Assembly (NCBI GenBank): GCA_903831575.1
Contig: CAIKYB010000037.1
Coordinates: 1 to 64,000 of the forward strand
Length of the DNA: 64,000 nt
Reading direction: 5' to 3'
DNA from: an uncultured Bacteroidota bacterium
Lineage (GTDB): Bacteria > Bacteroidota > Bacteroidia > Chitinophagales > Chitinophagaceae
The translations under genes and the position numbers were made by a program. This document shows, piece after piece, positions 11,438 through 56,023 of the stretch (positions are counted from its first letter, which is position 1; each line of letters starts with the position of its first letter). The notes under the pieces were generated by a model. That model was given only the letters and a program-made list of their open reading frames with translations, searched no databases and was not told where the DNA came from.

Positions 11438-12457
11438 CTAATTGATATTATTAATTAAATCAAGGAGTCTTTCCACCATTTCTGGCGTTACATCCAAATG
11501 TGTTACCATTCTAATTTGTGTCGAGGAAATGGGGATACACAAAATATGATGTTGTTTTAAAAGTTCTGCTAAGGAAGTTGCTGTAAATTTCCCCTTTACT
11601 TCAAAAATAATCATATTGGTTTCAATGGGAAGTATTTCACCAATGAAGTCTTTTTTGCTTAATGCTATTCCAATTTTTTGTGCATGTTGATGGTCTGTTT
11701 CAAGTCTGCTGATATTGTTTTCTAAAGCATAAAGTCCGGCGGCTCCCAAATATCCGGCTTGTCGCATTCCTCCTCCAAATACTTTTCTAACTCTCCGCGC
11801 TTTTTTTATAAAATCTATTTTACCTAATAAGACACTTCCTACAGGTGCGCCAAGTCCTTTGCTCAAACAAATGGAAATAGTATCAAATATTTCCCCGTAT
11901 TGTTTTGGGGATTCATTTTTACAGATAAGTGCATTCCACAATCGAGCTCCGTCCAGGTGAAAATTAATGTTATGACTTAAACATAATTCTTTTATTAATT
12001 GGAGATGATTCATCTCATAACAGCTGCCGCCACCTCTGTTTGCAGTATTTTCAACTGAAACCAAAGCTGTAACCGGCTTATGTATATCTTCAGCATTTAT
12101 CGCTTCAAGTACCTGGTTTGCCTGAATCCTTCCTCGGTTTCCTTCAATTGGTTTGACCTGACAACCACTATTTGAAGCAACTCCGCCTCCTTCATATATA
12201 TATATATGACTCATTTTTTCACAAATGACTTCATTTCCAGGTTGAGTATGGCATTTTATTGCAATTTGATTGGTCATAGTGCCGCTCGGACAAAATAAAG
12301 CAGCTTCCATACCAAACATTGATGCACATTCATTTTCCAATTTGTTTATGCTAGGATCCTCGCCAAAAACATCATCCCCAACATTTGCTTTAAACATCGC
12401 TTCGAGCATCCCTTGGGAGGGTTTTGTAAAAGTGTCTGATCTCAAATCAATTAACAT
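11438..12457 (-). CDS. ltaE: Low-specificity L-threonine aldolase
   Basis: A PLP enzyme that cleaves threonine/allo-threonine to glycine and acetaldehyde. The 339 residues begin LIDLRSDTFTKPSQGM, a hallmark of the family. GTMTNQIAIK is a cofactor-contact region, HLDGARLWNA holds the PLP-binding aspartate and arginine, and the Schiff-base lysine lies in LSKGLGAPVGS. A perfect TAnnTTTG box ends four bases before the ATG, so the mRNA may be leaderless. It is separated from the downstream GT87 by only 41 bp. Confidence 0.95.
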   Translation of the reverse strand: MLIDLRSDTFTKPSQGMLEAMFKANVGDDVFGEDPSINKLENECASMFGMEAALFCPSGTMTNQIAIKCHTQPGNEVICEKMSHIYIYEGGGVASNSGCQVKPIEGNRGRIQANQVLEAINAEDIHKPVTALVSVENTANRGGGSCYEMNHLQLIKELCLSHNINFHLDGARLWNALICKNESPKQYGEIFDTISICLSKGLGAPVGSVLLGKIDFIKKARRVRKVFGGGMRQAGYLGAAGLYALENNISRLETDHQHAQKIGIALSKKDFIGEILPIETNMIIFEVKGKFTATSLAELLKQHHILCIPISSTQIRMVTHLDVTPEMVERLLDLINNIN

Positions 12458-12461
12458 GCAG

Positions 12462-12469
12462 CAAAAATA
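12462..12469 (-). promoter_or_regulatory. -7 box (TATTTTTG) four bases before ltaE ATG
   Basis: On the minus strand TATTTTTG is followed by CTGC and then ATG. With the box centred at -7, transcription would begin at the A of the start codon. No clear TTTG -33 element was found at the usual spacing. Confidence 0.55.
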
Positions 12470-12609
12470 AGCATTGATGCTTAACTTTTAGTGTTCAAAT
12501 TAAATGAACTTTCGCTGTTTTTCGCTGTTAATTGCTTTTAAATTCATGATTTTTCAGCGAATGTGTATATTTTTTTTCATAACTGCTATGAAATGCAAAT
12601 ATTGAATAC

Positions 12610-12617
12610 TACCTTTG
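12610..12617 (+). promoter_or_regulatory. -7 box (TACCTTTG) upstream of rpoD
   Basis: TACCTTTG matches the TAnnTTTG consensus and lies 103 bases before the rpoD ATG, giving a leader of about 95 bases. A good -33 TTTG is not seen at normal spacing, so the call is tentative. Confidence 0.4.
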
Positions 12618-12720
12618 TGAATACTTAAAAAACAAATAATCAACGATTTTTCGTTTCTTTTGAAAATTTCTCCAATAGTCTTATTCATTAAAATATTAAT
12701 TTCTAAAATAATTCCATAAA

Positions 12721-13578
12721 ATGAGACAACTCAAGATAGCTACACAGATTACGAACAGAGATTCACAGGCGGTTGAAAAATATCTTCAGGAGATTTCTAA
12801 AATATCGATGATTACACCAGAGGAAGAAACGACTCTAGCTCAGAAAATTAAAATGGGAGATCAAAGGGCTTTGGATAAATTGGTTCAGGCGAATTTGAGA
12901 TTTGTGGTTTCTGTTGCAAAACAATACCAGCATCAGGGGCTTTCTTTGAGTGATTTGATTAATGAAGGTAATCTCGGTCTAATCAAAGCTGCGCAACGTT
13001 TTGATGAAACCAAAGGGTTTAAATTTATCTCTTATGCAGTGTGGTGGATTCGTCAATCTATTTTACAGGCATTGGCTGAACAAGGAAGATTGGTTCGTTT
13101 GCCTCAAAATAAAATCGGTACTTATAATAAAGCAAATAAAGCATACATGGCTTTTGAACAAGAGCATGAAAGAGAGCCTTCAACTGAAGAGTTGGCAGAA
13201 TTGCTTGAAATGAGTGAAACAGAAATTAATAATATTTTTCAAAGTAATACAAGACATACATCACTCGATGCTCCAGTACACGAAGCTGAAGATGTGGCTA
13301 TGGGAGATTTATTGAAAGGTGGTTCTGAAACTGATGAAGATGTGATGCACGATTCTTTGAAGAATGAAATTCGCAGAGTATTGAAGTCCTTAAGCCCTAG
13401 AGAAGCAGAAATTGTAAATGCTTATTTCGGCTTAGATGGAGAAAATGGAGTTACAATCGAGCAAATTGGTCAGAAATATGATTTGACTAAAGAACGTATT
13501 CGTCAAATTAAAGAAAGAGCCATCAAACGCTTACAAAAAGCAAGATACAGTGGCGCACTAAAAGCTTATCTTGGTTAA
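12721..13578 (+). CDS. rpoD: Primary RNA polymerase sigma factor RpoD (sigma-A/SigABfr type)
   Basis: A 285-residue sigma-70 factor. The short length without a large 1.1/NCR region is typical of the Bacteroidota primary sigma. Region 1.2 is DSQAVEKYLQEISKI, region 2 carries LVQANLRFVVSVA and the -10 recognition helix FISYAVWWIRQSI, region 3 follows QGRLVRLPQN, and region 4 ends with the helix-turn-helix LTKERIRQIKERAIKRL. It should recognise the TTTG / TAnnTTTG promoters seen in this window. It stands alone, with its own terminator 3' of the stop. Confidence 0.97.
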   Translation: MRQLKIATQITNRDSQAVEKYLQEISKISMITPEEETTLAQKIKMGDQRALDKLVQANLRFVVSVAKQYQHQGLSLSDLINEGNLGLIKAAQRFDETKGFKFISYAVWWIRQSILQALAEQGRLVRLPQNKIGTYNKANKAYMAFEQEHEREPSTEELAELLEMSETEINNIFQSNTRHTSLDAPVHEAEDVAMGDLLKGGSETDEDVMHDSLKNEIRRVLKSLSPREAEIVNAYFGLDGENGVTIEQIGQKYDLTKERIRQIKERAIKRLQKARYSGALKAYLG

Positions 13579-13593
13579 TCAGTCAAAAAGTTG

Positions 13594-13618
13594 AACCCCG
13601 AATTTTTCGGGGTTTTTT
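13594..13618 (+). terminator. Intrinsic terminator after rpoD
   Basis: A 9-bp GC-containing stem (AACCCCGAA / TTCGGGGTT, loop TTT) is followed by a T run, 15 bases after the rpoD stop. Confidence 0.9.
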
Positions 13619-13658
13619 ATTGTCGAAATTTATCAGTGAACTTCCAATTAGTTTTAAT

Positions 13659-13666
13659 TATTTTCG
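13659..13666 (+). promoter_or_regulatory. Weak -7-like box (TATTTTCG) four bases before the DUF4249 ATG
   Basis: One mismatch from TAnnTTTG, followed by CTGA and ATG: the same four-base spacing seen at ltaE, the helicase gene, hscB and mtaB. It lies downstream of the rpoD terminator, where a promoter is needed. Confidence 0.3.
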
Positions 13667-13670
13667 CTGA

Positions 13671-14546
13671 ATGAAAAATGTAGTTATTCTATTTTTATTG
13701 TCATTACTCTTTGGCTGTGAGAAAAACATCGATTTTAAATTGGATGAATCAGCTCCTACATTAGTGGTTGATGCTGAAATTGAGAATGGCAAACCTCCAA
13801 AAGTAGTACTTACGAAAAGTATTCCTTACTTTAGTCAGATTACGCCTGAAATACTTGCGAATTCTTTTGTTCACGATGCAGAAGTCTATCTTTCAAATGG
13901 ATTACTAACGCAAAAACTAAAAGAATATACTAATAATTTTATCCCTGGTTTTTCTACTTACTTCTATAGTATTGATACGTCTTTATTAAATACGGCTTTT
14001 GACGGAGTGTTAAATACTTCTTATCAATTGAAAGTAATTGTTGAAGGAAAAGAATACAATGCTGAAACACAGATCCCTGCATTAAATGTTTTTCCTGATT
14101 CTGTTTATTTTAAACCGGCACCAGATAATCCAGATACGAATACAAGAGTTTTGTTTGCCATAATTTCTGATCCTGCAGGATTAGGAAATTATATCAGGTA
14201 TTATACAAAGAGGAATAGCAGTCCTTTTTTCCCGGGTCGCAGATCTGTTTATACTGATGAAATAATCGATGGTACAACCTATACCGCTAAACTTGATCCG
14301 GGATTTGATTATAATAATCCTCCTGCTTCGGGGGAAGATTTTTTTATGAAATCAGATACCATCACTTTAAAAGTGAGTAACATTAATCGTGCTTCTTATA
14401 CTTTTTGGAATACATGGGAATTTGCTTATCAAAGTATTGGTAATCCTTTTGCACAACCCAACAAAGTAATAGGAAATATTTCCAATGGAGCACTTGGCGC
14501 ATTTTGTGGTTATGCTTCCTGGAATAAAACCATCATTGTTCCCTAA
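13671..14546 (+). CDS. DUF4249 family lipoprotein
   Basis: A 291-residue predicted outer-membrane lipoprotein: the signal peptide ends in a lipobox LLFGC (Cys 16). The mature start (FKLDESAPTLVVDAEIENG) is characteristic of DUF4249, a beta-sandwich family of Bacteroidota. Family members usually follow a TonB-dependent receptor gene, but here the neighbours are rpoD and trxB, so it is an orphan copy. Function is unknown. Confidence 0.8.
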   Translation: MKNVVILFLLSLLFGCEKNIDFKLDESAPTLVVDAEIENGKPPKVVLTKSIPYFSQITPEILANSFVHDAEVYLSNGLLTQKLKEYTNNFIPGFSTYFYSIDTSLLNTAFDGVLNTSYQLKVIVEGKEYNAETQIPALNVFPDSVYFKPAPDNPDTNTRVLFAIISDPAGLGNYIRYYTKRNSSPFFPGRRSVYTDEIIDGTTYTAKLDPGFDYNNPPASGEDFFMKSDTITLKVSNINRASYTFWNTWEFAYQSIGNPFAQPNKVIGNISNGALGAFCGYASWNKTIIVP

Positions 14547-14588
14547 ATAATTCTATAAATAATATTTAATAATTAAATTTTTCAAATA

Positions 14589-15536
14589 ATGACACTATCA
14601 ATTTCAGAAAAAGTAGGATGCCTGATTATAGGATCTGGACCAGCTGGATATACTGCTGCTATCTATGCATCAAGGGCTAATCTCCATCCTGTATTATATC
14701 AGGGTATTCAGCCTGGAGGTCAATTAACTATTACAACAGAAGTAGAAAATTATCCAGGATATCCTGAAGGAATTCAAGGTCCGGAGATGATGGAGCATTT
14801 TGAAAATCAAGCAAAAAGAATGGGAGCGGATATTCGTTACGGGTTGGCAACTGCAGTAGACTTTTCTTCACATCCTTTGAAGGTTCAAATTGATGAAGAG
14901 AAATGGATTGAAGCCAATGCTGTAATTATCAGTACAGGAGCTTCTGCGAAATGGCTAGGCTTGCCAAGTGAGCAAAGGTTAAATGGGTTTGGTGTAAGTG
15001 CTTGTGCCGTCTGTGATGGTTTCTTTTTTAAAGGGAAAGAAGTGGTGATTGTTGGAGCAGGAGATACAGCTGCAGAAGAAGCGCTTTATCTTTCAAAATT
15101 GTGTACTGTCGTTCATATGGTGGTTAGGAAAAATCAAATGCGTGCAAGTAAAGTTATGCAGGATCGCGTGTTGAAAACAGACAATATAAAGATGTATTGG
15201 AATTCAGTAACAGATGAAATTCTTGGAGAAAATAAAGTAGAAGCAGTGAGACTGAAAAATAGTCAATCAGGGGAATTGACTACTATCCCGGTAAGTGCTT
15301 TCTTTGTTGCAATTGGTCATGAACCTAACAGTCTTATTTTTAAAGACTATATTGATATGGATGAGACTGGTTATATTAAAACAATTCCCGGAACAAGCAA
15401 AACAAATATTGAAGGTGTATTTGCTGCCGGAGATGTGCAGGATAAAACATACAGGCAAGCCGTTACTGCTGCAGGAAGTGGATGTATGGCCGCATTAGAT
15501 GCAGAAAGATTTTTAGGGGAAAAGGGATTACATTAA
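14589..15536 (+). CDS. trxB: Thioredoxin-disulfide reductase
   Basis: An NADPH-dependent flavoprotein that reduces thioredoxin in the cytoplasm. The 315 residues have an FAD-binding IIGSGPAGYTAAIYASRA, an NADPH-binding VIVGAGDTAAEEALYL, and the redox motif SACAVCDG with Cys139 and Cys142. The C-terminal FAD motif is GVFAAGDVQDKTYRQA. Length and motif order are those of the low-molecular-weight bacterial enzyme. folB follows after 11 bases. Confidence 0.97.
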   Translation: MTLSISEKVGCLIIGSGPAGYTAAIYASRANLHPVLYQGIQPGGQLTITTEVENYPGYPEGIQGPEMMEHFENQAKRMGADIRYGLATAVDFSSHPLKVQIDEEKWIEANAVIISTGASAKWLGLPSEQRLNGFGVSACAVCDGFFFKGKEVVIVGAGDTAAEEALYLSKLCTVVHMVVRKNQMRASKVMQDRVLKTDNIKMYWNSVTDEILGENKVEAVRLKNSQSGELTTIPVSAFFVAIGHEPNSLIFKDYIDMDETGYIKTIPGTSKTNIEGVFAAGDVQDKTYRQAVTAAGSGCMAALDAERFLGEKGLH

Positions 15537-15547
15537 AATTAATAAAA

Positions 15548-15901
15548 TTGTATACCATTCATTTACATCAGTTGTCTTTTTTTTCTTTTCATGGATTACA
15601 TGAGGAAGAGAAAATTCTAGGCAATTATTTCGAAGTATCATTGGATATAACAATGTTAAATGATATTCTTGTGCAGTCAATTGATGATACAGTAAATTAT
15701 GCTGAAGTATATGAAATAGTAAAGTATAAAATGAACAAGCCCACACTTTTGCTTGAAGTCCTTGCAGCAGATATGGCAACAGCTATTTATGCTTTTAATA
15801 ATCGAATAAATAAAATTAGCATCACCATAAAAAAAGTAACACCACCCCTCAAAAATTTTTCCGGACAAGTTGGGGTTACCTTTGAAAAAATATTTGATTG
15901 A
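15548..15901 (+). CDS. folB: Dihydroneopterin aldolase
   Basis: Folate pathway enzyme that converts 7,8-dihydroneopterin to 6-hydroxymethyl-dihydropterin and glycolaldehyde. Visible are FHGLHEEEKILGNYFEV near the N-terminus (catalytic glutamate), LLEVLAADMA in the middle and ITIKKVTPP holding the conserved lysine. I place the start at the TTG at 15548, giving 117 residues (family about 120). An ATG at 15482 in the same frame lies inside trxB and would add a non-homologous N-terminus. The short gap to trxB suggests one transcript. Confidence 0.88.
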   Translation: MYTIHLHQLSFFSFHGLHEEEKILGNYFEVSLDITMLNDILVQSIDDTVNYAEVYEIVKYKMNKPTLLLEVLAADMATAIYAFNNRINKISITIKKVTPPLKNFSGQVGVTFEKIFD

Positions 15902-15921
15902 TATAAAAACATTTTTAGAAA

Positions 15922-16692
15922 TTGAATTTTAAAATCTATCATACTAATTTTTTACTGCTATTTTATTTTATTGCTCTATGTTTAGTGTCAAAAGCGCAGG
16001 ATTTTGATAGCCTATATCAAAAAGGGATACAATTAGAACTTTCCTTAAATGAGAAACTGGCCTTATCTAAATTCAAAGAGGCACAGAAGATACAACCCTT
16101 AAATTTACCCTCATTATATAAATGCAGTGAATTGTGTAATCGAATAGGTGCAAGAGAATCTGACCCTGTTATAAAAGAACATTATTTCAATTCAGCGCTT
16201 GAATATGCAAAAATTGCGTACGCTCATTTTCCGCAGAGCGATGATGCGAATGTAGCAATGAGTATGGCTTTAGGAAGGATTGCACTTACTAAAAGTGGTC
16301 GAGAAAAAATAGTTACTGTAAATGAGATTAAAAGCTATGCTGAAAAAGCGATTAAAATTAATCCTAATAATTTTAAGGCATGGCATATTATAGGCAAATG
16401 GCATTATGAAGTTAGTAGCTTAAATTTTATGGAACAGCTAGCGGTTAAGTATTTTTATGGAGGACTGCCAGAATCTTCATTTGAAGAATCTATTAAAGCT
16501 TATGAGAATGCTAAATCAATCAATCCAAATTTCTGTCTTAATTATCTTGAATTAGCAAAGGCATATAAAAAGATGAATAACATGGAAAAAGCGATATTCA
16601 ATTTGAAAAAGATTAGTGCTATTCCAAATTATAATGAGGATGACAACAGAATTAAAAAAGAGGCATTATTATTATTAAAAAAATGGGATTGA
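15922..16692 (+). CDS. TPR protein, RMD-like (regulator of microtubule dynamics fold), exported
   Basis: A 256-residue protein with a signal peptide ending SKAQ and several TPR-like helical hairpins. The stretch [15 protein letters not shown], then [20 protein letters not shown] and [14 protein letters not shown], is the pattern of the RMD1/RMDN TPR family, which is common in Bacteroidota. The start is a TTG, 20 bases after folB. No enzymatic motif is seen; a scaffold role in the envelope is likely. It is followed by an M1 peptidase on the same strand. Confidence 0.8.
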
Positions 16693-16742
16693 TTTATATA
16701 AGAAGTGTTCCTTTCACTAGATTATTTTTTAAAAATTTATTT

Positions 16743-18698: not shown

Positions 18699-18751
18699 TT
18701 TTCGAAACGAAAGCTTAAGCTGTTTTAGAAGTTACGTCGCTGCGCTTGTTT

Positions 18752-18860
18752 AATCATTTAACTCTACTAAACAATTTTCAACTAGCCTTCAACCCTTCAT
18801 CTAATCAACCATTCAACTAATTAACCAATCAACCATTCAATAACATCCAACCAACCAATC
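18752..18860. repeat. A/C-rich low-complexity tract (CCAATCAA / CAACCATTCAA type)
   Basis: The gap between the convergent M1 peptidase and MATE genes is filled with short imperfect repeats of AACCAATCAACCATTCAAC. Similar tracts occur in six other gaps of this window. On the coding strand of the MATE gene it reads as TTGGTTGATTGG just after its stop. Confidence 0.7.
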
Positions 18861-20208
18861 ACCCTTTTCTCCATTTCTCTGATTTCATATAAAAATATGC
18901 CATACTTAATATCGTTGTCCAATAGATGAATTCATTACTCCAGGCCATTGCGAGTGAAACGTAATGATATTTCATAAAATACCAAGTGTAGATCAGATAG
19001 AGAAGAATAGCTGAAATTTCTATCAATAAGTTTATTTTAGTTTTACCCGTACCCGTTAATCCATTAAGCCAAATATTAGCAACGCTCATTAGGATCATTC
19101 CTAATGATACGATCCTGATTACAGGAATACCTTCTTCCAGAAAAGTTTCATTTTGACCAAATAATTTAAAGAAATGAATAGGAAAAAGGTTTAAAATTAA
19201 AATGATAATGAAGCACAAGCTTAAACTCCAGTAGCTTATTTTTTTTATTATAGGGATAACCATGTCTTCTCTTTTTTGTCCAATCAAATTCGATACCATG
19301 GTATTGCTAGTCCCTGCAAATGCCCAAATAAAAACACCTGCCAATCCAAATACATTTCTCATGGTATTGCTGATGGCTTTTGCCATAGGACCTTTTGTTT
19401 CTATTAAAAGAAAAAATACTAGCCATGTCGCCAAACTGAGAATAAATTGTAAAATAAGTGGCAAAGCTACTTTTAGAATTTGTTTACTAATGACAACATC
19501 TTTGGCAAAAGATGAGAGCAAGTTGAATTTCTTTTTTAATCCTGAATAAACGATGACTACAAATACAACAATCATTCCAATACATTCTGACAATACAGAT
19601 GCTACAGCTGCTCCATTAAATCCCATTGTTGGCAAACCGAATTTCCCAAAAATGAGAAGATAATCGAAAAAGACATTGCATAAAGCCTCGCAAGCAAAAC
19701 CAATTAATAAATAGCGGCTGTTTAATGAAGCTATTAAAAAGGCATTTCCCATTTGAAATAAATATAGAAAGGGGAGTCCCATTATTCTTATTTTTAAAAA
19801 ACTCATTTCAGCAGGGTAGGATGTGGGGTTGGCCACTTCTTTAAGAATCAAGGGAGCTACCAACCAGGTGAAAAGAATAAAAACTACTGAAAGTTGAATG
19901 CTGATTCTTATCCCTTGTGCCAATACTGTTTTGAAGGCTTCAGGCTTGCCACTTCCTGCATATCCGGAAAATACGGATTGCATAGAACTGTTTAGCCCAT
20001 GACCAGCAACAGCAAAAATGAGGTAGAAAACACCTGTAATGCCCGCATTGCCAAGGGCTTCATGGCTGAGGTGCCCCAGAAATATGCTATTTACCAGCAT
20101 ATTTAATTGTGGAATTAATATTGCTAAGGTTATAGGAAGCGCAATCGACAATATTTGTTTATTGTCAACATGCACTCTTAAGTCATTTATTGTTTCATTT
20201 CTTTCCAT
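18859..20208 (-). CDS. MATE family efflux transporter
   Basis: A 449-residue membrane protein with 12 hydrophobic segments in two MatE halves. The N-terminal signature IALPITLAILIPQLNMLVNS and the VSNLIGQK loop in the second half fit Na+/H+-driven multidrug and toxin extrusion proteins. The substrate is unknown. It stands alone, divergent from the DUF3822-rsmD-lpxK unit. A TATTTTTG -7 box lies 8 bases before its ATG. Confidence 0.92.
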   Translation of the reverse strand: MERNETINDLRVHVDNKQILSIALPITLAILIPQLNMLVNSIFLGHLSHEALGNAGITGVFYLIFAVAGHGLNSSMQSVFSGYAGSGKPEAFKTVLAQGIRISIQLSVVFILFTWLVAPLILKEVANPTSYPAEMSFLKIRIMGLPFLYLFQMGNAFLIASLNSRYLLIGFACEALCNVFFDYLLIFGKFGLPTMGFNGAAVASVLSECIGMIVVFVVIVYSGLKKKFNLLSSFAKDVVISKQILKVALPLILQFILSLATWLVFFLLIETKGPMAKAISNTMRNVFGLAGVFIWAFAGTSNTMVSNLIGQKREDMVIPIIKKISYWSLSLCFIIILILNLFPIHFFKLFGQNETFLEEGIPVIRIVSLGMILMSVANIWLNGLTGTGKTKINLLIEISAILLYLIYTWYFMKYHYVSLAMAWSNEFIYWTTILSMAYFYMKSEKWRKG

Positions 20209-20216
20209 AAAGTCAG

Positions 20217-20224
20217 CAAAAATA
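20217..20224 (-). promoter_or_regulatory. -7 box (TATTTTTG) for the MATE gene in a near-palindrome
   Basis: TATTTTTG on the minus strand ends eight bases before the MATE ATG. With the plus-strand TATTTTG at 20228-20234 it forms a near-palindrome in the divergent gap, so both directions may be served from here. Confidence 0.45.
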
Positions 20225-20253
20225 TTGTTATTTTGCTAGCTCAAATTATATAA

Positions 20254-21593: not shown

Positions 21594-21604
21594 ATTTTAC
21601 AGCA

Positions 21605-30048: not shown

Positions 30049-30056
30049 CAAATTTA
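30049..30056 (-). promoter_or_regulatory. -7 box (TAAATTTG) four bases before the helicase ATG
   Basis: Minus strand reads TAAATTTG, CAAC, ATG. If this promoter is used, the transcript starts at or next to the start codon. Confidence 0.5.
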
Positions 30057-33128: not shown

Positions 33129-33136
33129 CAAATGTA
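33129..33136 (-). promoter_or_regulatory. -7 box (TACATTTG) for gyrA
   Basis: Perfect TAnnTTTG on the minus strand, ending 16 bases before the gyrA ATG, which leaves a leader of about 10-12 bases. Confidence 0.5.
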
Positions 33137-44465: not shown

Positions 44466-45039
44466 TGGATATAGCTTTTATTGTTTGAAATTTCACCAAT
44501 TGATGTATTTGAAATTCGCTATTCAATTCTTTTTCTGCTACTAGCTGGGCATTGGCATTAGAATTATCATAAATCAAAAGATAATCAACCTGTTTTTCAT
44601 ACAAATGAAAAAGATTTTTTATGCCATTTTTATATCTTCTTTCTATCACTACCTCTTCTATATTATGTCCACCTTCAGAAACTCTTTTCAATACCCTATC
44701 CTTTGCTAATTCAACTGATTCTAACCAAAAGAAAATCAAAGTTACATAATATCCCCTTTCCTTTGCATAAATGATTGTTTGGATAAATGACTTAGATGAT
44801 AAAGTTGTTTCAAATGAAAAATCTTGACCTGAATTCATCAACTCGTCTATTCTTTTTAGCATTAGTCTGCCAGCCTCAATAGATACTTTTTCTGGTTGAA
44901 ATGGTGAAATTCCTCTTGCAATCTCATCCGCATTTACAAATTCCTTACACTGAAGCAAATCAGGAAGTATATTAAAAGACGCTGTTGTTTTGCCTGCTCC
45001 ATTACAACCACTTATAATATAAAGCTTCTTTTCGGACAT
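44455..45039 (-). CDS. Zeta-toxin-like P-loop kinase (COG4185 type)
   Basis: A 194-residue P-loop protein: Walker A SGCNGAGKTTAS near the N-terminus, NADEIARGISPFQP, the substrate motif FETTLSSKSF, and the lid RVLKRVSEGGHNIEEVVIERRY. These match the zeta-toxin / predicted ABC-type ATPase group, whose toxins phosphorylate UDP-GlcNAc or other small substrates. I start at ATG 45039, three bases after a TAACTTTG box; the two codons upstream would lie within that box. A 53-codon gene overlaps its end. Confidence 0.87.
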   Translation of the reverse strand: MSEKKLYIISGCNGAGKTTASFNILPDLLQCKEFVNADEIARGISPFQPEKVSIEAGRLMLKRIDELMNSGQDFSFETTLSSKSFIQTIIYAKERGYYVTLIFFWLESVELAKDRVLKRVSEGGHNIEEVVIERRYKNGIKNLFHLYEKQVDYLLIYDNSNANAQLVAEKELNSEFQIHQLVKFQTIKAISNEQ

Positions 45040-45325: not shown

Positions 45326-45814
45326 TTAATCAGCCAATCTATCCAAAATACGCTCTAAATATTTTTTCTTATAATAATATACTTTCATTTTTAAGAATTC
45401 TTGTTCTGAGAAATTGCTGCTGTAGTTTTCAACATATTCTTTAATCTCAGTATAAAAAGCTTCATCATATTGGTGTATTCTTTCCATTGCTTTGGAGGAA
45501 TCTATATCTGTGAGTTCTTCATTGAATTCCATCATTTCCATTAAAAAATCATTAGGTAAAATGTACTTTTCATTTGGCAAAATGATTTTCTTCTTAATTA
45601 GAAAATATTCAAGTGTTTTTTGATTATTCTTGAATATTATAAATGCCTTATTAATTTCAGCAGATAAAGCCAATGCCTCTTCTTTTTCACTTTCTGTAGC
45701 ATTCGTAAAAAAATCAGGATGATTTTTTTTCTGTAAATCAAAATACCTTCTGGCTAATAAGCTTTTGTCTACTATAGGAGCAATTGGTAAATCAAACAAT
45801 TCAAAATAGTTCAT
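45326..45814 (-). CDS. hscB: Fe-S cluster assembly co-chaperone HscB
   Basis: A 162-residue J-protein that passes the IscU scaffold to the HscA chaperone. The J-domain carries His32-Pro33-Asp34 (KKNHPDFF). The C-terminal helical bundle has the acidic ILPNDFLMEMMEFNEEL, typical of HscB. I choose the ATG at 45814 (MNYFELFDL, the family start); the frame is open 16 codons further but a TACCTTTG box lies four bases before 45814, so those codons are probably not transcribed. It is divergent from the lysine-ketoglutarate reductase gene. Confidence 0.9.
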   Translation of the reverse strand: MNYFELFDLPIAPIVDKSLLARRYFDLQKKNHPDFFTNATESEKEEALALSAEINKAFIIFKNNQKTLEYFLIKKKIILPNEKYILPNDFLMEMMEFNEELTDIDSSKAMERIHQYDEAFYTEIKEYVENYSSNFSEQEFLKMKVYYYKKKYLERILDRLAD

Positions 45815-45818: not shown

Positions 45819-45826
45819 CAAAGGTA
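45819..45826 (-). promoter_or_regulatory. -7 box (TACCTTTG) four bases before hscB ATG
   Basis: Minus strand reads TACCTTTG, GAAT, ATG. It predicts a leaderless hscB mRNA and fixes the start codon. Confidence 0.55.
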
Positions 45827-45877
45827 TGCATGACAATAATAATTTAAAAATGTAAATTGCAATCAAATAAAAACGAA

Positions 45878-47083
45878 ATGCTTAAAATTGGCCTCATTAG
45901 AGAAGGTAAAATACCTGCTGACAATCGGGTGGCACTCACTCCCGCTCATTGTAAATTTATCAATAAAACTCAGGAAGGATTAGAAGTTATTATTCAGCAA
46001 AGTCTTGCTCGTTGCTATACTGACGAAGAATATATAATGGCTGGTGTTGAAGTGAAAGATGATGTTAGTGATTGTGATATTTTATTAGGGATCAAGGAAG
46101 TGCCTCTTGACATGTTGATTCCCCATAAAACGTACTTATTTTTTTCACATACTAAAAAAATGCAACCGTACAATCAAAAATTAATTAAAGAGGTCATAGC
46201 CAAAAAAATAACGCTAATTGATTATGAATGTCTAGAGCATGAAGACGGTAAAAGAATTATCGGGTTTGGTTTTTTTGCAGGAGTAGTAGGTGCCCATAAT
46301 GGAATAATGGCTTATGGAAAAAAAACAGGTGCATTTGATTTGGGAAGAGTCAATTCGAATGAAAGTTTTAACGACTTGATTCACACTTATTTCGGGTTAA
46401 ATATTCCGCCAATAAAAATAGCGGTAACTGGCAGTGGTCGTGTTGCGCATGGTGTTTTAGAAATAATGAATTTATTAGGTATTCATGAAGTTGAACCTGA
46501 TGAATATTTGGAGAAGCAATTCCCCTATCCTGTTTATGTGCATCTTAAAGGAAGAGATCTGTATGTGCATTCAAATAAAAACACCTACAATCGTAATGAT
46601 TTTCATCAACATCCTTCCTCGTATAAATGTACTTTTGATCAATACATTCCACATACGGATATTCTAATGAATGGTATTTATTGGGATCATGATATTCCAA
46701 GATTATTTGAAAAAGATGCATTGCAAAATGCTGATTTTAATATTAAAACTATCGCTGACATTACAGACGATAGGTATGGTTCTGTTCCTTGTAATCTTGG
46801 AGACTCTACTATCGAAGATCCAGTTTATGGAGTAGATAAAAAGACTCTTGAAAAAACTGCCCCTTATCTTCAACATACAGTTGATATGATGTCTGTAGGC
46901 AATTTGCCTAATGAACTTCCAAGAGATGCAAGTCGATATTTCGGCCAGCAGTTAATCAAACATGTATTGAAAGATATTATTGATGGGAATAGTTCAATTA
47001 TTGATAAAGCTACCATAGTTAAAAATGGAGTGCTAACAGAACATTATAGTTATATGAAAGAATATGCGGGGGTGTCTAGTTGA
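45878..47083 (+). CDS. Lysine-ketoglutarate reductase type saccharopine dehydrogenase (LKR half)
   Basis: A 401-residue protein of the AlaDH/PNT fold. GLIREGKIPADNRVALTP, KTYLFFSHTKKMQPYN, LIDYE, FGFFAGVVGAHNGI, AVTGSGRVAHG and ILMNGIYWDHDIPRL closely follow the LKR domain of the animal/plant LKR-SDH enzyme (AASS), which joins lysine and 2-oxoglutarate into saccharopine. Alanine dehydrogenase is less likely because the FFSHT and NGIYW motifs are LKR-specific. Start at ATG 45878; a TTG seven codons upstream is the other choice. The SDH partner lies at 33347-34801. Confidence 0.85.
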   Translation: MLKIGLIREGKIPADNRVALTPAHCKFINKTQEGLEVIIQQSLARCYTDEEYIMAGVEVKDDVSDCDILLGIKEVPLDMLIPHKTYLFFSHTKKMQPYNQKLIKEVIAKKITLIDYECLEHEDGKRIIGFGFFAGVVGAHNGIMAYGKKTGAFDLGRVNSNESFNDLIHTYFGLNIPPIKIAVTGSGRVAHGVLEIMNLLGIHEVEPDEYLEKQFPYPVYVHLKGRDLYVHSNKNTYNRNDFHQHPSSYKCTFDQYIPHTDILMNGIYWDHDIPRLFEKDALQNADFNIKTIADITDDRYGSVPCNLGDSTIEDPVYGVDKKTLEKTAPYLQHTVDMMSVGNLPNELPRDASRYFGQQLIKHVLKDIIDGNSSIIDKATIVKNGVLTEHYSYMKEYAGVSS

Positions 47084-47833: not shown

Positions 47834-47886
47834 AATGAAAAAATAAATATTGATTTTAGAATAAGTTTAAAGAAAAAGTAGTCTAT

Positions 47887-48927: not shown

Positions 48928-49028
48928 TTAATTTGAAATTAAAAAATAAAAATTAAAAAGTAAAAAATAGCTTGTTTACCAAATTATTCAATCAACCCAT
49001 TAACCAAGCAACTAGTTAATTCTTCACC

Positions 49029-50273: not shown

Positions 50274-50322
50274 GTAAAAATACCAATCTTGTGTGATTAT
50301 TACGGTGTGATTAGAGTTAGTT

Positions 50323-50428
50323 TAATAAGTTGATTTGTTGATTAAGTTGAGTCCCTATGTGGTTAATGATGAGTCAACGAATAAACCAATGAACCAATGA
50401 ACTAATTAACTAACCAACTAACTACTTC
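50323..50428. repeat. Inverted T/G-rich and A/C-rich tracts between permease and rseP
   Basis: Plus strand TTGATTTGTTGATTAAGTTGAG (50332 on) and CCAATGAACCAATGAACTAATTAAC-like sequence (about 50385-50420) face each other in a 148-bp gap and can fold back. The A/C half directly follows the rseP stop on its coding strand as TTGGTTAGTT-like sequence. Confidence 0.55.
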
Positions 50429-51801
50429 CCCCAACCAAACCAATCATTACCATTTGCATAAAGCATCAATGCAAGTAATATAAACATTCCTACGACTTGG
50501 GCATATTCTAAAAATTTCTCACTTGGTTTTCTGCCGGTAATCATTTCAATTAATGTAAATAATACATGACCTCCATCTAAAGCTGGTATAGGCAATAAAT
50601 TCATAAAGGCTAATACTATAGAGAAAAATGCTGTGATAGTCCAGAAATGTTCCCAATCCCAACCATTACCAGAGAAAACGGATCCCATTGCTTTAAATCC
50701 ACCAATTCCTTTATAGGCACCAGTTTTAGGGGATAATATTTTTTTAAATTGATCTATGTAAAAGCTCAATTCACTCCCGGCACGTTTGATTCCTGCAGGA
50801 ATAGCAGCAAAGAAACCATATTTTTTTTCTGTGTATTTATAGATGCCTAAGCTGTCATATTGCTCAGGTAAGTTTGGTGCTCCAAATCCTACTATTCCAT
50901 CTTCCTGCAAAGTAGTTGCAATAGTTATGTTATTGTTGTTCCTATTAACAATTAAAGAAATGGCTGCTCCTTTTTTTCTTTGCTCCATCGCTGCATCAAA
51001 CTGGTCACGGAATTGTGTATTTACAGAATCTATACTTACGATAAGATCGCCTTTTCGAAGTCCATTTTTATAAGCTATAGAAGTATCGTATATATCCAAA
51101 ACGATAACGGGTACACGAGGACTAATAATTGGTTTGTCAGATTTTTTTCTTTTTTCAACCAGCTTGCCAATAAGATCCACCGGCATAGCTAATTGCATTT
51201 GCTTTCCTTCTCTTTCAATGGTTACATTACTATCAACAACCAATAATTTTTTTAGTACATCGGTATAATCATCAATATGTTTACCATCTACTGCGAGTAT
51301 TTTATCGCCATTTTTAAATCCTAGTTCTTTAAAAATGGGGTCGTTAAAAGAAATGCCATATTTCAAAGAATCCGCTTTTATGTTTTTTTCGCCCCATACC
51401 ATTAAAATCATGGCGTAGATGATAAAAGCCAGTAAAATATTTACAGTTACGCCCCCTATCATGATGATCAAACGTTGCCAGGCCGGTTTGCTCCTGAATT
51501 CCCAAGGTTGAGCTGGTAGTTTCATCTGTTCTTTATCCATGCTTTCATCAACCATACCGGAAATTTTCACATAACCACCAAGCGGTAACCATCCAACACC
51601 ATATTCGGTATCTCCAACTTTCTTTTTAAAAATAGAAAACCAGGGATCAAAAAATAAATAAAATTTTTCAACTCTGCATTTAAACCATTTCGCTGTTATG
51701 AAATGTCCAAATTCATGAAGGATAACCAGTATAGAAAGAGAAAGTAGAAGTTGTGCAGCTTTAAGTCCTACACTTGACCATTCAATTACTAGAAGACTCA
51801 T
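50422..51801 (-). CDS. rseP: RIP metalloprotease RseP (site-2 protease)
   Basis: A 459-residue intramembrane zinc protease. The active site ILHEFGHF is in the first membrane helix (His29, Glu30, His33), the third ligand in NLLPIPALDGGH near the C-terminus, and one or two PDZ domains lie between (KNGDKILAVDGKHIDDY, LRKGDLIVSIDS). It cleaves anti-sigma factors or signal peptides in the membrane. It follows dxr by 39 bp, a common Bacteroidota gene order. Confidence 0.95.
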   Translation of the reverse strand: MSLLVIEWSSVGLKAAQLLLSLSILVILHEFGHFITAKWFKCRVEKFYLFFDPWFSIFKKKVGDTEYGVGWLPLGGYVKISGMVDESMDKEQMKLPAQPWEFRSKPAWQRLIIMIGGVTVNILLAFIIYAMILMVWGEKNIKADSLKYGISFNDPIFKELGFKNGDKILAVDGKHIDDYTDVLKKLLVVDSNVTIEREGKQMQLAMPVDLIGKLVEKRKKSDKPIISPRVPVIVLDIYDTSIAYKNGLRKGDLIVSIDSVNTQFRDQFDAAMEQRKKGAAISLIVNRNNNNITIATTLQEDGIVGFGAPNLPEQYDSLGIYKYTEKKYGFFAAIPAGIKRAGSELSFYIDQFKKILSPKTGAYKGIGGFKAMGSVFSGNGWDWEHFWTITAFFSIVLAFMNLLPIPALDGGHVLFTLIEMITGRKPSEKFLEYAQVVGMFILLALMLYANGNDWFGWGK

Positions 51802-51840
51802 AATATTAATTAATCAGTTTATTAGTATGCAATCATTTAT

Positions 51841-53010
51841 TTAAATGTTTATTAAAGATGCTGCAAAGTTTCGTGCTTCGCCATCTGTATCGAAATATTC
51901 TTGTAAAGTGGGTTTTTGAATAAAGGCAATTGCGTCCATTGTTTTCTCAACGACAGCCGTAATATCTAAAAATCCGATCCTATTTTTTAAAAATGCCCAA
52001 ACTGCAATTTCATTAGCCGCATTTAAAATACAAGCTTTATTACCTCCACTTTGAAGTGCATCAATCGCTAGACCTAAATTTCTGAACGTCTTATAATCGG
52101 GCTCTTCGAAATTTAAAGAAGGATATTTTTTAAAGCTGAATCTTGGGAAATCATTCTTTATGCGTTGAGGAAAGCCTAAAGCATATTGAATGGGTAATTT
52201 CATATCGGGCAAACCCATTTGGGCTTTTATGCTACCATCTTCAAATTGAACCATACTATGTATAATGCTTTGAGGATGAATAACTACTTCAATTTGATTG
52301 CAATTTAAATTGAAAAGCCATTTGGCTTCTATCATCTCTAAACCTTTGTTCATCAGTGTTGCAGAATCGATAGAAATCTTAGCTCCCATACTCCAATTAG
52401 GATGTTGTAAGGCATGATCCCGTTTTACATTTACTAGAAAATTTGGTTTTTTTCCAAGAAATGGCCCACCACTTGCGGTAAGTATAATTCGTTCTATTGG
52501 ATTTCGCGCCTCACCAATCAAACATTGAAAAATGGCTGAATGCTCACTATCAACCGGAATGATAGGCGATTTGTGTTCAATGGCTTTTTGCATAACAATA
52601 TCACCAGCCACAACTAAAGTTTCTTTATTCGCCAAAGCGATAATTCTACCCTTTTCAACGGCCTTTAATGTGGGTTTTAATCCTGCAAATCCTACAATAG
52701 CCGCAATCATAATATCATAGGTGTCAAAATCGGCTACTTCTTCTAAGGCCAATTCTCCAGCAAAAACTTTGATATCAGTAGAAGAAAGTGCAGCTTTAAC
52801 CTTTTCGTATTTGGCCTCGTCTACTATAACAACCGCATTGGGCTTGAATTCTATGGCCTGATTGATAAGCAGTTCATCGTTGGTATGAGCCGTAAGAATC
52901 TCTACTTCAAATAGCTCTTTATTGGATCTGATGACGTCCAAAGCCTGGGTGCCAATGGAACCCGTTGAGCCAAAAATGGCTACTCTTTTCTTTGGAAAAT
53001 CTGCCGACAT
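51841..53010 (-). CDS. dxr: 1-deoxy-D-xylulose 5-phosphate reductoisomerase
   Basis: Second enzyme of the MEP isoprenoid pathway (DXP to MEP, NADPH). The 389 residues contain IFGSTGSIGTQALDVI, ALANKETLVVAG, the metal-binding PVDSEHSAIFQCL, LTASGGPF, and the C-terminal ANEIAVWAFLK. So isoprenoids here come from the MEP route. It is the first gene of dxr-rseP. CCAATAA-N6-TTATTGG at 53055-53074 upstream is a short hairpin of unknown meaning. Confidence 0.96.
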   Translation of the reverse strand: MSADFPKKRVAIFGSTGSIGTQALDVIRSNKELFEVEILTAHTNDELLINQAIEFKPNAVVIVDEAKYEKVKAALSSTDIKVFAGELALEEVADFDTYDIMIAAIVGFAGLKPTLKAVEKGRIIALANKETLVVAGDIVMQKAIEHKSPIIPVDSEHSAIFQCLIGEARNPIERIILTASGGPFLGKKPNFLVNVKRDHALQHPNWSMGAKISIDSATLMNKGLEMIEAKWLFNLNCNQIEVVIHPQSIIHSMVQFEDGSIKAQMGLPDMKLPIQYALGFPQRIKNDFPRFSFKKYPSLNFEEPDYKTFRNLGLAIDALQSGGNKACILNAANEIAVWAFLKNRIGFLDITAVVEKTMDAIAFIQKPTLQEYFDTDGEARNFAASLINI

Positions 53011-53161
53011 ATTATAATGGTAGTTTTAGTAATTAAAATCTGCTGCAATTTAATCCAATAAATGTTGTTATTGGCAAAAACAGTTAAAAATGCAATATTC
53101 TTTGTAATTATTGTTGATTTGAAATGAAGCCCTTGTCGATGTGTATTGAGATTGCTGTGTT

Positions 53162-54658
53162 TTATATTAAAACAAAAGGGCTCAGTCCGTCAGCAATATT
53201 TCTGTCGTTGGATAATCTTGGGACTTTATTCTGCCCGCCCAATTTTCCAATACTTTTCATGTAATCTATAAATCCATTTTTTTGAACGACAGTAATTTTG
53301 AGCGTTTGTAAAATATTGCCGCTAATCAAGTCATCATAATATACATTTTTCTGACGAAGTTGACTATCCAGTTTTTCTGAAAATGCTGTAAGATTATCTG
53401 GTGCTGTTTCAAATTCAATAAACCATTCATGGTAACTTTTACCCTTATCTGAACTAATAAATGGCGCAACTGTAAATTCTGTGATGTGAACATTCGACTC
53501 TTTAGAAACAGTCATCATAGACGATTCTACTTCTTCTGCAATTACATGTTCACCAAATGCAGAAATGAAATGTTTTATTCTTCCCGTTACAATAATTCGA
53601 AATGGTTTTAGAGAAACAAATTTAATTGTATCTCCAATATTGTATGCCCACAATCCAGCATTAGAGCTGATAATTAAGGCATAATTAATGCCAATGCAAA
53701 CATCTTTTAAGCTTAATCTTGTTGGATTTTCACTATTAATTTCTTCTACAGGGATAAACTCATAGAATATGCCACTATTGGTATTTAATAACATACCTGG
53801 TTCTGTTAGCGAATCTTGAAAGGCAAAAAAGCCTTCACTTGCAGGGAATAATTCTATGGTATCAATTTTTCGTCCAATGCTTTCCGTTAGTTTGGCTTTA
53901 TAGGGTTCGTAATTTACGCCACCTTGAACCATTACGTTAAAATTAGGGAACAACTCTCCTATTTTCTTTCCTGATTTTTCAATGAGTCTGTCAAAATACA
54001 TTTGTACCCATGGTGGGATACCGCTAATCAATGTCATGTTTTCATTGATGGTTTCTGCTACAATCTTTTCAAGCTTTTGTTCCCAGTCTTCCATGCAATT
54101 GGTTTCATAAGACGGAAGCTGGTTGGATCTTAAATATTTGGGGATATGATGATTCACAATGCCACTTAATCTTCCTGTTGGTATTCCTCCTACTCTTTCT
54201 AATTCTGGGGAGCCACTTAAGAAAATTAGTTTGCCATCTGCAAATTGAGTGTTGCCTGTTTCTGCCATATAACATAAAAGCGCATTACGGGCAGTATTGA
54301 TATGATTGGGAATAGAATCTTTTGTAATGGGAATGTATTTGACTCCACTGGTGGTACCACTTGTTTTAGCAAAGTAAATCGGTAGGCCTTTCCATAAAAT
54401 ATTATGCTTCCCGGTTTTTATTTTTTCAATATAAACTTTGAATTTTTCATAATCACGAATAGGTACTTGCTTTAGAAAATCTTTATGAGATTTTATTGTT
54501 CCAAATTGATGATCAATTCCAAATGCTGTTTTACTCCCGATCTTGATTAAATGATTGAAAATGGATTGTTGGTCTTCAATAGCATTAACCATCGATTTCT
54601 TAATCTGGCGATGAATAATGTTGGCAAATGGCTTTGCTAGTAATGATTTTATCTTCAT
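53162..54658 (-). CDS. GH3 auxin-responsive promoter family protein (acyl-adenylating)
   Basis: A 498-residue member of the GH3 branch of the ANL adenylating enzymes. The ATP loop reads YFAKTSGTTSGVKYIPIT, followed by LSGSPELERVGGIPTGRLSG and ELFPASEGFFAFQ (usual acyl-adenylate motif region), and WAYNIGDTIKFVS. Plant GH3 proteins join amino acids to acyl hormones; the bacterial substrate is unknown. Divergent from mtaB. A TACATTTG box lies 51 bases before its ATG. Confidence 0.9.
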   Translation of the reverse strand: MKIKSLLAKPFANIIHRQIKKSMVNAIEDQQSIFNHLIKIGSKTAFGIDHQFGTIKSHKDFLKQVPIRDYEKFKVYIEKIKTGKHNILWKGLPIYFAKTSGTTSGVKYIPITKDSIPNHINTARNALLCYMAETGNTQFADGKLIFLSGSPELERVGGIPTGRLSGIVNHHIPKYLRSNQLPSYETNCMEDWEQKLEKIVAETINENMTLISGIPPWVQMYFDRLIEKSGKKIGELFPNFNVMVQGGVNYEPYKAKLTESIGRKIDTIELFPASEGFFAFQDSLTEPGMLLNTNSGIFYEFIPVEEINSENPTRLSLKDVCIGINYALIISSNAGLWAYNIGDTIKFVSLKPFRIIVTGRIKHFISAFGEHVIAEEVESSMMTVSKESNVHITEFTVAPFISSDKGKSYHEWFIEFETAPDNLTAFSEKLDSQLRQKNVYYDDLISGNILQTLKITVVQKNGFIDYMKSIGKLGGQNKVPRLSNDRNIADGLSPFVLI

Positions 54659-54709
54659 TAAGTTGATTTTCTAACTTCGGATTTGGAAATCATCTCTTTA
54701 ATTAGCCCA

Positions 54710-54717
54710 CAAATGTA
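54710..54717 (-). promoter_or_regulatory. -7 box (TACATTTG) for the GH3 gene
   Basis: Perfect TAnnTTTG on the minus strand with a predicted leader of about 45 bases. It lies back to back with the mtaB box 25 bp away. Confidence 0.5.
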
Positions 54718-54742
54718 TATAAACTGAAGAAAAAATAATACT

Positions 54743-54750
54743 TATTTTTG
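54743..54750 (+). promoter_or_regulatory. -7 box (TATTTTTG) four bases before mtaB ATG
   Basis: Plus strand reads TATTTTTG, CCAA, ATG, so transcription would begin at the start codon. Confidence 0.55.
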
Positions 54751-54754
54751 CCAA

Positions 54755-56023
54755 ATGAATAAATCGGTAGCCTTGCACACTTTGGGTTGTAAGTTAAATT
54801 ACAGCGAAACGACTGCAATGGCCAGAATGCTGGAAAATGATGGCTTTATTAAAAAGGATTTTGATGAGGTCGCAGATTTGTATGTAATCAATACTTGTTC
54901 GGTTACGGATAATGCAGATAAGGAATGTAGACAATTGGTAAGACGTATCCAACGAAAAGCCCCTGAAGCACTTGTTGTCATTACCGGATGTTATGCTCAA
55001 TTAAAGCCACAGGAAATTGCTGCAATACCGGGAGTGAATTTGGTTTTAGGTGCGGCTGAAAAATTCAATATTGCTTCGCATTTAAAAGAGCTGACTAAAA
55101 ATGATTCAGGCAAAATTTGCAGCTGCGATATAGAAGACGTTAATATTTTTATTCCATCTTTTTCATTGAAAGAAAGAACCCGAATCTTTTTAAAGGTTCA
55201 GGATGGCTGTGATTATAATTGCAGTTTTTGTACCATTCCTATGGCAAGAGGAAAAAGTAGAAGTGACAGTATTGAAAATGTATTAAAAAATGTAGCAGAA
55301 ATTACATCAGCTGGAGGTAAAGAGATTGTATTAACCGGGATTAATTTGGGCGATTTTGGTAAAGGATATTCTGGTGGAAAGAAACATGGGGAAGATTTTT
55401 TCGAGTTAATGAAAGTGCTTGAAGCAGAAAGTCAAATTGAGAGGATTAGAATTTCATCAATAGAGCCCAATTTACTAACAAATGACATGATAACATTTGT
55501 TAGTAATAGTAAAAAGTTTATGCCGCATTTTCATATACCCTTGCAAAGCGGGAGCAATAAAACGCTAGCGGGTATGCGTAGAAGATATAAAAAAGAATTG
55601 TATGCAGAAAGAGTGGATCTGATAAAATCATTAATGCCACATGCTTGTATTGGAGCGGATGTTATCGTGGGATTTCCTGGCGAAACAGATGCGGATTTTC
55701 AGGAAACAGCTGATTTTGTAGCAGGATTAGATATTTCATATTTACATGTCTTTACCTATTCCGAAAGAGATAATACCCAGGCACTAGAAATACAAACAAT
55801 TGTTCCAATTACTGTAAGAAATGAAAGGAATAAAATACTTCGTAATACCAGTTACTTAAAAATGCAGGCTTTTACTGATAAGCATATTGGCCAAACCCGA
55901 AAAGTTTTATTTGAAGGGGAAAATAAAAACGGAATGATGGAAGGGTTTACAGATAATTACATCAAGATTATAGTTCCTTATAATTCAGCACTGGAGAATA
56001 AAATAGCAGATTGGGTAGTTTAA
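54755..56023 (+). CDS. mtaB: tRNA t6A37 methylthiotransferase MtaB
   Basis: Radical-SAM enzyme that converts t6A37 to ms2t6A37 in tRNA. The 422 residues carry the auxiliary cluster cysteines Cys12, Cys48 and Cys79 (UPF0004 domain; HTLGCKLNYSET) and the radical-SAM cluster Cys152, Cys156, Cys159 (GCDYNCSFCTIP). A TRAM-like domain ends the protein. The HTLGCKLN start marks MtaB over MiaB (which has TFGCQMN). It works downstream of TsaD, also in this window. Confidence 0.95.
   Translation: MNKSVALHTLGCKLNYSETTAMARMLENDGFIKKDFDEVADLYVINTCSVTDNADKECRQLVRRIQRKAPEALVVITGCYAQLKPQEIAAIPGVNLVLGAAEKFNIASHLKELTKNDSGKICSCDIEDVNIFIPSFSLKERTRIFLKVQDGCDYNCSFCTIPMARGKSRSDSIENVLKNVAEITSAGGKEIVLTGINLGDFGKGYSGGKKHGEDFFELMKVLEAESQIERIRISSIEPNLLTNDMITFVSNSKKFMPHFHIPLQSGSNKTLAGMRRRYKKELYAERVDLIKSLMPHACIGADVIVGFPGETDADFQETADFVAGLDISYLHVFTYSERDNTQALEIQTIVPITVRNERNKILRNTSYLKMQAFTDKHIGQTRKVLFEGENKNGMMEGFTDNYIKIIVPYNSALENKIADWVV

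What the first reader, a model, noticed from the sequence alone, without database searches (positions are those of the whole stretch)
12455..54757. Several genes have a TAnnTTTG box ending exactly four bases before ATG: predicted leaderless mRNAs
Minus-strand ltaE (TATTTTTG-CTGC-ATG), the DbpA-like helicase (TAAATTTG-CAAC-ATG), hscB (TACCTTTG-GAAT-ATG) and plus-strand mtaB (TATTTTTG-CCAA-ATG) share the same spacing. The Zeta-like gene has three bases, and the DUF4249 gene (TATTTTCG-CTGA-ATG) fits with one mismatch. If the box lies at -12 to -5, +1 is the A of ATG. A six-base motif at a fixed offset should rarely hit by chance even once among the ~45 gene starts here. It also settles start codons (hscB at 45814, Zeta-like at 45039).
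Basis: partly seen in the sequence, partly recalled or inferred. Interest (0 to 1): 0.75.

Follow-up and report, generated by a model that had tools for sequence, protein, structure and literature searches.

The report
Conserved leaderless-mRNA promoters in Bacteroidota
Several genes in this Bacteroidota genome have their main promoter box so close to the start codon that the messenger RNA should begin at or next to the start codon itself; this is a known minority class of genes, and here it is statistically real and preserved between related species.

Summary
TANNTTTG ends exactly 4 nt before ATG in ltaE, dbpA, hscB and mtaB. In 40 other stretches of the same genome (795 kb), 8 of 552 ATG genes show it, against 0.49 in shuffles. 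Distances peak sharply at 4-5, are nearly absent at 8-13, and form a broad hump at 14-37. Same-genus orthologs keep an exact box at 3-7 nt: mtaB 17 of 21, ltaE 13 of 20, dbpA 12 of 18, hscB 10 of 16, DUF4249 15 of 19 (shuffles: below 0.2 each). The box is the -7 element of the Bacteroidota primary sigma factor, whose gene lies in the window. In Flavobacterium johnsoniae transcription starts 4-5 nt past it (PMC6847099), so +1 falls on the A of ATG. Leaderless mRNAs in this phylum are already published. What I did not find in print is the depth for mtaB: an exact box 4-8 nt from ATG in 66 of the 80 best named loci, though mostly at 6-8 nt, i.e. nearly leaderless. No RNA data exist here.

The parts
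12462..12469 (-). -7 box TATTTTTG, 4 nt before the ATG of ltaE
   Evidence: exact box at 4 nt in 13 of 20 same-genus rows, 17 of 20 with one mismatch allowed
11438..12457 (-). ltaE-like threonine aldolase (Beta_elim_lyase), predicted leaderless
   Evidence: Pfam PF01212 E 4.5e-96
30049..30056 (-). -7 box TAAATTTG, 4 nt before the first ATG of the DbpA-like helicase
   Evidence: exact box at 4-5 nt in 12 of 18 same-genus rows; the second in-frame ATG at codon 6 is absent in orthologs that keep the box, e.g. L073, L076
28713..30044 (-). DbpA-like DEAD-box RNA helicase, predicted leaderless
   Evidence: Pfam DEAD, Helicase_C, DbpA
45819..45826 (-). -7 box TACCTTTG, 4 nt before the ATG of hscB
   Evidence: exact box at 4 nt in 10 of 16 same-genus rows; 3 of 16 have the box 37-38 nt away instead
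45326..45814 (-). hscB Fe-S co-chaperone, predicted leaderless; start 45814, not the longer TTG ORF start 45862
   Evidence: Pfam HSCB_C; same-genus orthologs begin at the same residue, mostly MNYF
54743..54750 (+). -7 box TATTTTTG, 4 nt before the ATG of mtaB
   Evidence: exact box at 4-6 nt in 17 of 21 same-genus rows; at 4-8 nt in 66 of the 80 best named loci
54755..56023 (+). mtaB-like tRNA methylthiotransferase (UPF0004 + Radical_SAM), predicted leaderless
13659..13666 (+). variant -7 box TATTTTCG, 4 nt before the ATG of the DUF4249 gene
   Evidence: 15 of 19 same-genus rows have the exact box at 4-7 nt, 19 of 19 with one mismatch
13671..14546 (+). DUF4249 gene, predicted leaderless
   Evidence: Pfam PF14054
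45043..45050 (-). TAACTTTG, 3 nt before the Zeta-like ATG; not supported as leaderless
   Evidence: no box within 8 nt in any of 7 homologs with a readable N-terminus, and none within 80 nt in the two nearest
12721..13578 (+). primary sigma factor gene (regions 1.2, 2, 3, 4; 285 aa; no region 1.1 hit), divergent from ltaE
33129..33136 (-). control: -7 box TACATTTG, 16 nt before gyrA (leadered mode)
   Evidence: exact box at 16-17 nt in 10 of 21 same-genus rows, 14 of 21 with one mismatch

Best explanation
The TANNTTTG boxes are -7 elements of the housekeeping sigma factor, placed so that transcription starts at the A of the start codon or within about 2 nt of it. The genes are therefore transcribed as leaderless mRNAs, and the ribosome would start at the 5'-terminal AUG. 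Other genes of this genome with the same box mostly carry it 14-37 nt upstream and would give mRNAs with leaders of roughly 10-33 nt. Shown by sequence: the box, the fixed spacing, the enrichment, the two modes and the conservation. Inferred: the +1 position (from F. johnsoniae) and leaderless translation.
For: Peak at 4 nt outside the window: 8 of 552 against 0.49; replicated in relatives. The N positions avoid G as in mapped sigma-A promoters: 1 of 21 boxes at 3-7 nt and 10 of 77 at 14-37 nt, against 114 of 336 in coding DNA and about 25% expected from upstream composition (P 0.02 and 0.007). Boxes at 3-7 nt sit at likely first genes of operons: 15 of 336, against 1 of 185 genes less than 60 nt behind a same-strand gene (P 0.014; 31 genes at stretch edges left out). 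Conservation in orthologs with differing spacers: exact in 10-17 of 16-21 rows per gene against at most 0.17 in shuffles; a non-window gene, mnmE, has 17 of 19. Two leadered controls keep 15-18 nt (gyrA 10 of 21 rows, mnmA 16 of 18), so the method does not force 4 nt. Published spacing of 4-5 nt from the -7 box to the start in F. johnsoniae.
Against: No transcript data for this organism. TTG shows no visible enrichment at the -33 position (also weak in F. johnsoniae). G-avoidance is weaker evidence than the coding comparison suggests: boxes 40-79 nt upstream also hold little G (6 of 39). Spacings of 6-8 nt, the commonest for mtaB outside the genus and 9 of 17 within it, imply leaders of about 1-4 nt rather than none. 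hscB has the box at 37-38 nt in three same-genus genomes. Outside the genus a close exact box (8 nt or less) is found for ltaE in 0 of 10 loci, hscB 0 of 3, mnmE 2 of 11. Ortholog rows are related and not independent.
Confidence: 0.88

Rival explanations
1. The boxes are chance or weak promoters, and the genes are really expressed from other promoters further upstream with ordinary leaders.
For: The raw pattern is not rare in this AT-rich DNA (5 against 2.3 in shuffles), and boxes off the consensus would be missed by my count.
Against: Enrichment at 4-5 nt with near absence at 8-13 nt, and conservation across orthologs. ltaE, hscB and mtaB each face a divergent gene 63-263 nt away, so no read-through from a same-strand neighbour is expected.
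Confidence: 0.06
2. The box is a translation-initiation signal in the mRNA (Kozak-like or S1-binding) rather than a promoter.
For: F. johnsoniae uses Kozak-like sequences (PMC6847099, title and passages; positions recalled); A is frequent at -3, -6, -11 and -12 here.
Against: The same box recurs as a second mode at 14-37 nt and is rare before genes inside operons. Genes with the box at 3-6 nt hold almost no A at -5 and -6, though that follows from the box itself lying there.
Confidence: 0.02
3. Transcription starts at the ATG but the real start codon is a later in-frame ATG, so the mRNA is leadered.
For: dbpA has a second ATG at codon 6, which would give a 19-nt spacing.
Against: Orthologs with the exact box at 4 nt lack that second ATG (L073, L076, L078). 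Window ltaE, mtaB and hscB have no second ATG within 15 codons and their conserved sequence begins at once.
Confidence: 0.03

Closest known systems
Leaderless mRNAs of Flavobacterium psychrophilum (PMC9723704; passages read)
   Same: Same phylum, sigma-A motif TAnnTTTG at -12 to -5; leaderless mRNAs are 5.5% of the mRNAs of 890 CDSs.
   Different: Mapped by RNA there, predicted here. Here 21 of 107 likely first genes with a TAHHTTYG box within 61 nt have it at 3-7 nt; that denominator leaves out long leaders, so the two figures are not directly comparable.
F. johnsoniae promoters (PMC6847099; passages read)
   Same: Revised -7 consensus TAHHTTTG, 4-5 nt to the start; G avoided at the H positions, as here.
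   Different: 87% of leaders there exceed 10 nt; the authors stress leadered mRNAs.
Bacteroides thetaiotaomicron dRNA-seq map (PMC7366714; passages read)
   Same: Same promoter type; about 3.7% of 5' UTRs shorter than 10 nt.
   Different: The examples named in the passage are transposases, sensor kinases and transporters, not the genes found here.

Membership tests
Bacteroidota sigma-A -7-element promoter | TAHHTTTG with G avoided at the two H positions | tested here: met
   1 of 21 boxes at 3-7 nt hold G, against 114 of 336 in coding DNA (P 0.003) and 25% expected from upstream composition (P 0.02); the four window boxes hold none
Bacteroidota sigma-A -7-element promoter | Genome encodes the short primary sigma factor | tested here: met
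   285-aa protein with Pfam regions 1.2, 2, 3 and 4 and no region 1.1 hit at 12721-13578
Bacteroides fragilis-type promoter with a -33 element | TTTG near -33 | tested here: not met
   TTG not visibly enriched 10-34 bases before 21 and 77 boxes (no formal test); PMC6847099 also finds it weak, so it is not needed for the entry above
Leaderless mRNA | Promoter spacing puts +1 at the start codon | tested here: met
   4 nt in four window genes; 8 of 552 genes outside the window at 4 nt against 0.49
Leaderless mRNA | 5' end of the RNA mapped at the AUG | not testable with these tools
   no RNA data
Leaderless mRNA | AUG preferred as start codon | tested here: inconclusive
   box at 3-7 nt in 21 of 598 ATG genes and 1 of 85 GTG/TTG genes; too few
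Leaderless mRNA | Translated from the 5'-terminal AUG | not testable with these tools
   needs ribosome profiling or reporters

The most novel reading that the evidence does not exclude
Leaderless or nearly leaderless initiation in Bacteroidota is not a leftover but a gene-specific trait kept by selection. mtaB keeps its promoter box 4-8 nt from the ATG in genomes of at least 15 families of the class. In this genome leader length falls into two discrete modes with leaders of about 4-9 nt avoided, i.e. two separate initiation routes in a phylum without Shine-Dalgarno sites.
Probability: 0.4. Interest if true: 0.55.

Novelty: new member of a known kind. Interest (0 to 1): 0.4.

Why it matters
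It shows that leaderless genes in Bacteroidota can be predicted from DNA by a six-base box at a fixed offset, and that this helps fix start codons. If mtaB is leaderless or nearly so across the class, it is a ready reporter for how ribosomes that work without Shine-Dalgarno pairing start on a bare AUG.

Tried and rejected
Raw pattern counts were not enough: 67 hits genome-wide against 43 for the reversed pattern, and in the 859-kb sample 27 hits, of which 12 sit at called starts, against 14 reversed. In-frame internal ATGs were a poor control for 4 nt: the box at 1, 4, 7, 10 or 13 nt lies in frame and hits none of 4583, which reflects codon usage. I considered whether ORF calling favours ATGs just after an in-frame TAA: only 3 of the 12 boxes at 4 nt begin TAA, and other in-frame offsets show no peak, so no. 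The -33 element gave nothing. The valley at 8-13 nt is clear in this genome (1 of the 65 boxes at 3-25 nt outside the window, P 7e-8) but weaker in relatives (4 boxes in 254 genes and 7 in 290), and mtaB in other genera often falls at 8 nt and sometimes at 9-13, so I do not claim it as general. A functional theme (tRNA modification: mtaB, mnmE, a Methyltransf_4 protein) was not tested against a background and is not claimed. Literature searches; among the listed titles (20 of 75 papers, 20 of 32, all in the others) none describes leaderless mtaB or leaderless genes in Chitinophagaceae. These are listings, apart from the passages named.

Rows used and dropped: mtaB 21 of 30 loci; dbpA 18 of 30 (paralogous helicases, truncated N-termini and one other-family locus left out); ltaE 20 of 30; hscB 16 of 19; mnmE 19 of 30; DUF4249 19 of 20 (one lost to N bases); gyrA 21 of 30 (22 genus loci, one lost to N bases); mnmA 18 of 30 (genus loci with a missing N-terminus or too little upstream DNA left out). 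Apart from such losses the dropped loci are other families. Each set includes the window genome's own row. In one search, 5 of 38 loci could not be anchored; one search gave loci for 30 (own included) of the 56 genomes with a match.
Full report
What was checked. The window lies on contig 37 of an unnamed 2.44-Mb genome in 46 contigs. The mtaB protein matches best records titled Chitinophagaceae bacterium, Chitinophaga or Ferruginibacter. Two same-genus genomes have contigs of 96,767 and 588,184 bases, the lengths of two listed records, one titled Ferruginibacter sp. and one only Bacteroidetes bacterium. The genus is therefore most likely Ferruginibacter or near it (inference; lineage).

The observation. 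TANNTTTGNNNNATG occurs at 2376, 12455, 30042, 45812 and 54743. Four of the five are gene starts; the one at 2376 lies inside the ORF 1538-5791. Pfam supports the names: a Beta_elim_lyase (ltaE), a DEAD helicase with a DbpA domain, an HscB C-terminal domain, a UPF0004 plus radical SAM protein (mtaB), a Zeta_toxin domain and DUF4249. Gene starts were called by a script of mine with a dicodon score that does not look at upstream boxes: 687 genes in 859 kb, 52 of them in the window.

Is it more than chance? Outside the window the box ends 4 nt before ATG in 8 of 552 genes, against 0.49 in dinucleotide shuffles (largest of 100 shuffles: 3). The counts by distance outside the window are: 3 nt 1, 4 nt 8, 5 nt 4, 6 nt 2, 7 nt 1, 8-13 nt 1 in all, 14-37 nt 76 in all. 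The window adds 4 at 4 nt, 1 at 3 nt, 1 at 8 nt and 1 at 16 nt. Samples of relatives repeat the peak: 5 of 254 genes in four same-genus genomes and 5 of 290 in five genomes of other families, at about 0.22 and 0.25 expected.

Is the box a promoter? Boxes near starts avoid G at the two free positions (1 of 21 at 3-7 nt, 10 of 77 at 14-37 nt, against 114 of 336 in coding sequence). Part of this is the low G of non-coding DNA: composition alone predicts 25%, which leaves P 0.02 and 0.007, and boxes at 40-79 nt show 6 of 39. F. johnsoniae shows the same: the authors revise the element to TAHHTTTG and find 4 or 5 nt to the start (PMC6847099, passages read). Close boxes occur at likely first genes of operons (15 of 336) and hardly inside operons (1 of 185). 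The window itself encodes the primary sigma factor at 12721-13578, next to and divergent from ltaE.

Conservation. In same-genus rows an exact box at 3-7 nt is present in mtaB 17 of 21, dbpA 12 of 18, ltaE 13 of 20, hscB 10 of 16, DUF4249 15 of 19 and mnmE 17 of 19, against 0.05-0.17 per set in shuffles. With one mismatch allowed the counts are 20, 16, 17, 13, 19 and 18, against 1.2-2.1 in shuffles. Spacers mostly differ, and columns outside the box mostly show pairwise identity of 0.2-0.45. The rows are related, so they are not independent events. The control genes gyrA and mnmA have an exact box at 14-18 nt in 10 of 21 and 16 of 18 rows. Switches exist: hscB has the box at 37-38 nt in three genomes of the genus, and mnmA at 4-5 nt in one genus member and in two other families. 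Beyond the genus a close exact box (8 nt or less) is found for ltaE in 0 of 10 loci, hscB 0 of 3, mnmE 2 of 11 and mtaB 3 of 9 loci of the same order.

Depth for mtaB. Of the 80 best named loci, 66 have an exact box 4-8 nt before the ATG (9 at 4, 4 at 5, 21 at 6, 18 at 7, 14 at 8), 8 more a one-mismatch box at 3-4 nt, 5 neither, and 1 no ATG. Most titles name Chitinophagaceae or genera I recall as such; 16 of 80 name only a wider group. In 38 loci outside the genus (all but one outside the family), 16 have an exact box at 3-8 nt (3 at 4 nt, 13 at 6-8 nt), 3 a one-mismatch box, 1 a box at 25 nt, 13 none of these (5 of them with a box at 9-13 nt), and 5 could not be anchored. By the handles the 16 come from 15 families. 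Where the spacing is 6-8 nt the RNA would carry a leader of about 1-4 nt, so 'leaderless' there is approximate.

The weak cases. The Zeta-like gene has 3 nt, one less than the mapped spacing. None of 7 homologs with a readable N-terminus has a box within 8 nt, and the two nearest (60% and 58% identity) have no exact box within 80 nt. Its start at 45039 agrees with the N-terminus of the nearest one. The DUF4249 box with a C is likely real: relatives have the exact box at 4-7 nt, and the TTCG form also recurs at the gyrA promoter position in relatives.

Known or new. Leaderless mRNAs in this phylum are published: 5.5% in F. psychrophilum (890 CDSs), about 3.7% of 5' UTRs under 10 nt in B. thetaiotaomicron, and 13% of leaders at 10 nt or less, by subtraction, in F. 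johnsoniae. An earlier survey based on Pribnow-like boxes found them in 1 of 37 Bacteroidetes/Chlorobi genomes and named that limit itself (PMC3160421, passages read). In this genome, 21 of 107 likely first genes with a TAHHTTYG box within 61 nt have it at 3-7 nt (19.6%, bootstrap 12-27%). This share leaves out long leaders and promoters off consensus, so it is an upper-side estimate. The finding is therefore a well-supported new instance of a known class, with gene-specific conservation that I did not see described in the searches listed.

Noticed in passing
window 45853-45860 (+), upstream of the AlaDh_PNT_N gene 45878-47083, divergent from hscB: A TAnnTTGY box (TAAATTGC) 17 nt before the ATG; 16 of 16 same-genus loci examined (window's own included) have TAnnTTGY at 16-20 nt, while the 3 loci outside the genus hold no such neighbour. 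It resembles the SM5 motif of F. psychrophilum (PMC9723704), which its authors ascribe to an alternative sigma factor.
   Followed up: partly
window 20217-20224 (-), before the MatE gene 18859-20208: TATTTTTG 8 nt before the ATG, one of two genes of 598 in the otherwise empty 8-13 nt range.
   Followed up: no
window 12610-12617 (+), before the sigma factor gene at 12721: The primary sigma factor gene has a TACCTTTG box about 100 nt upstream, a possible long leader.
   Followed up: no
L132, L135, L136 (hscB) and L313, L322, L328 (mnmA): Orthologs switch between close (4-5 nt) and distant (15-38 nt) promoter boxes, natural material for studying leader gain and loss.
   Followed up: no
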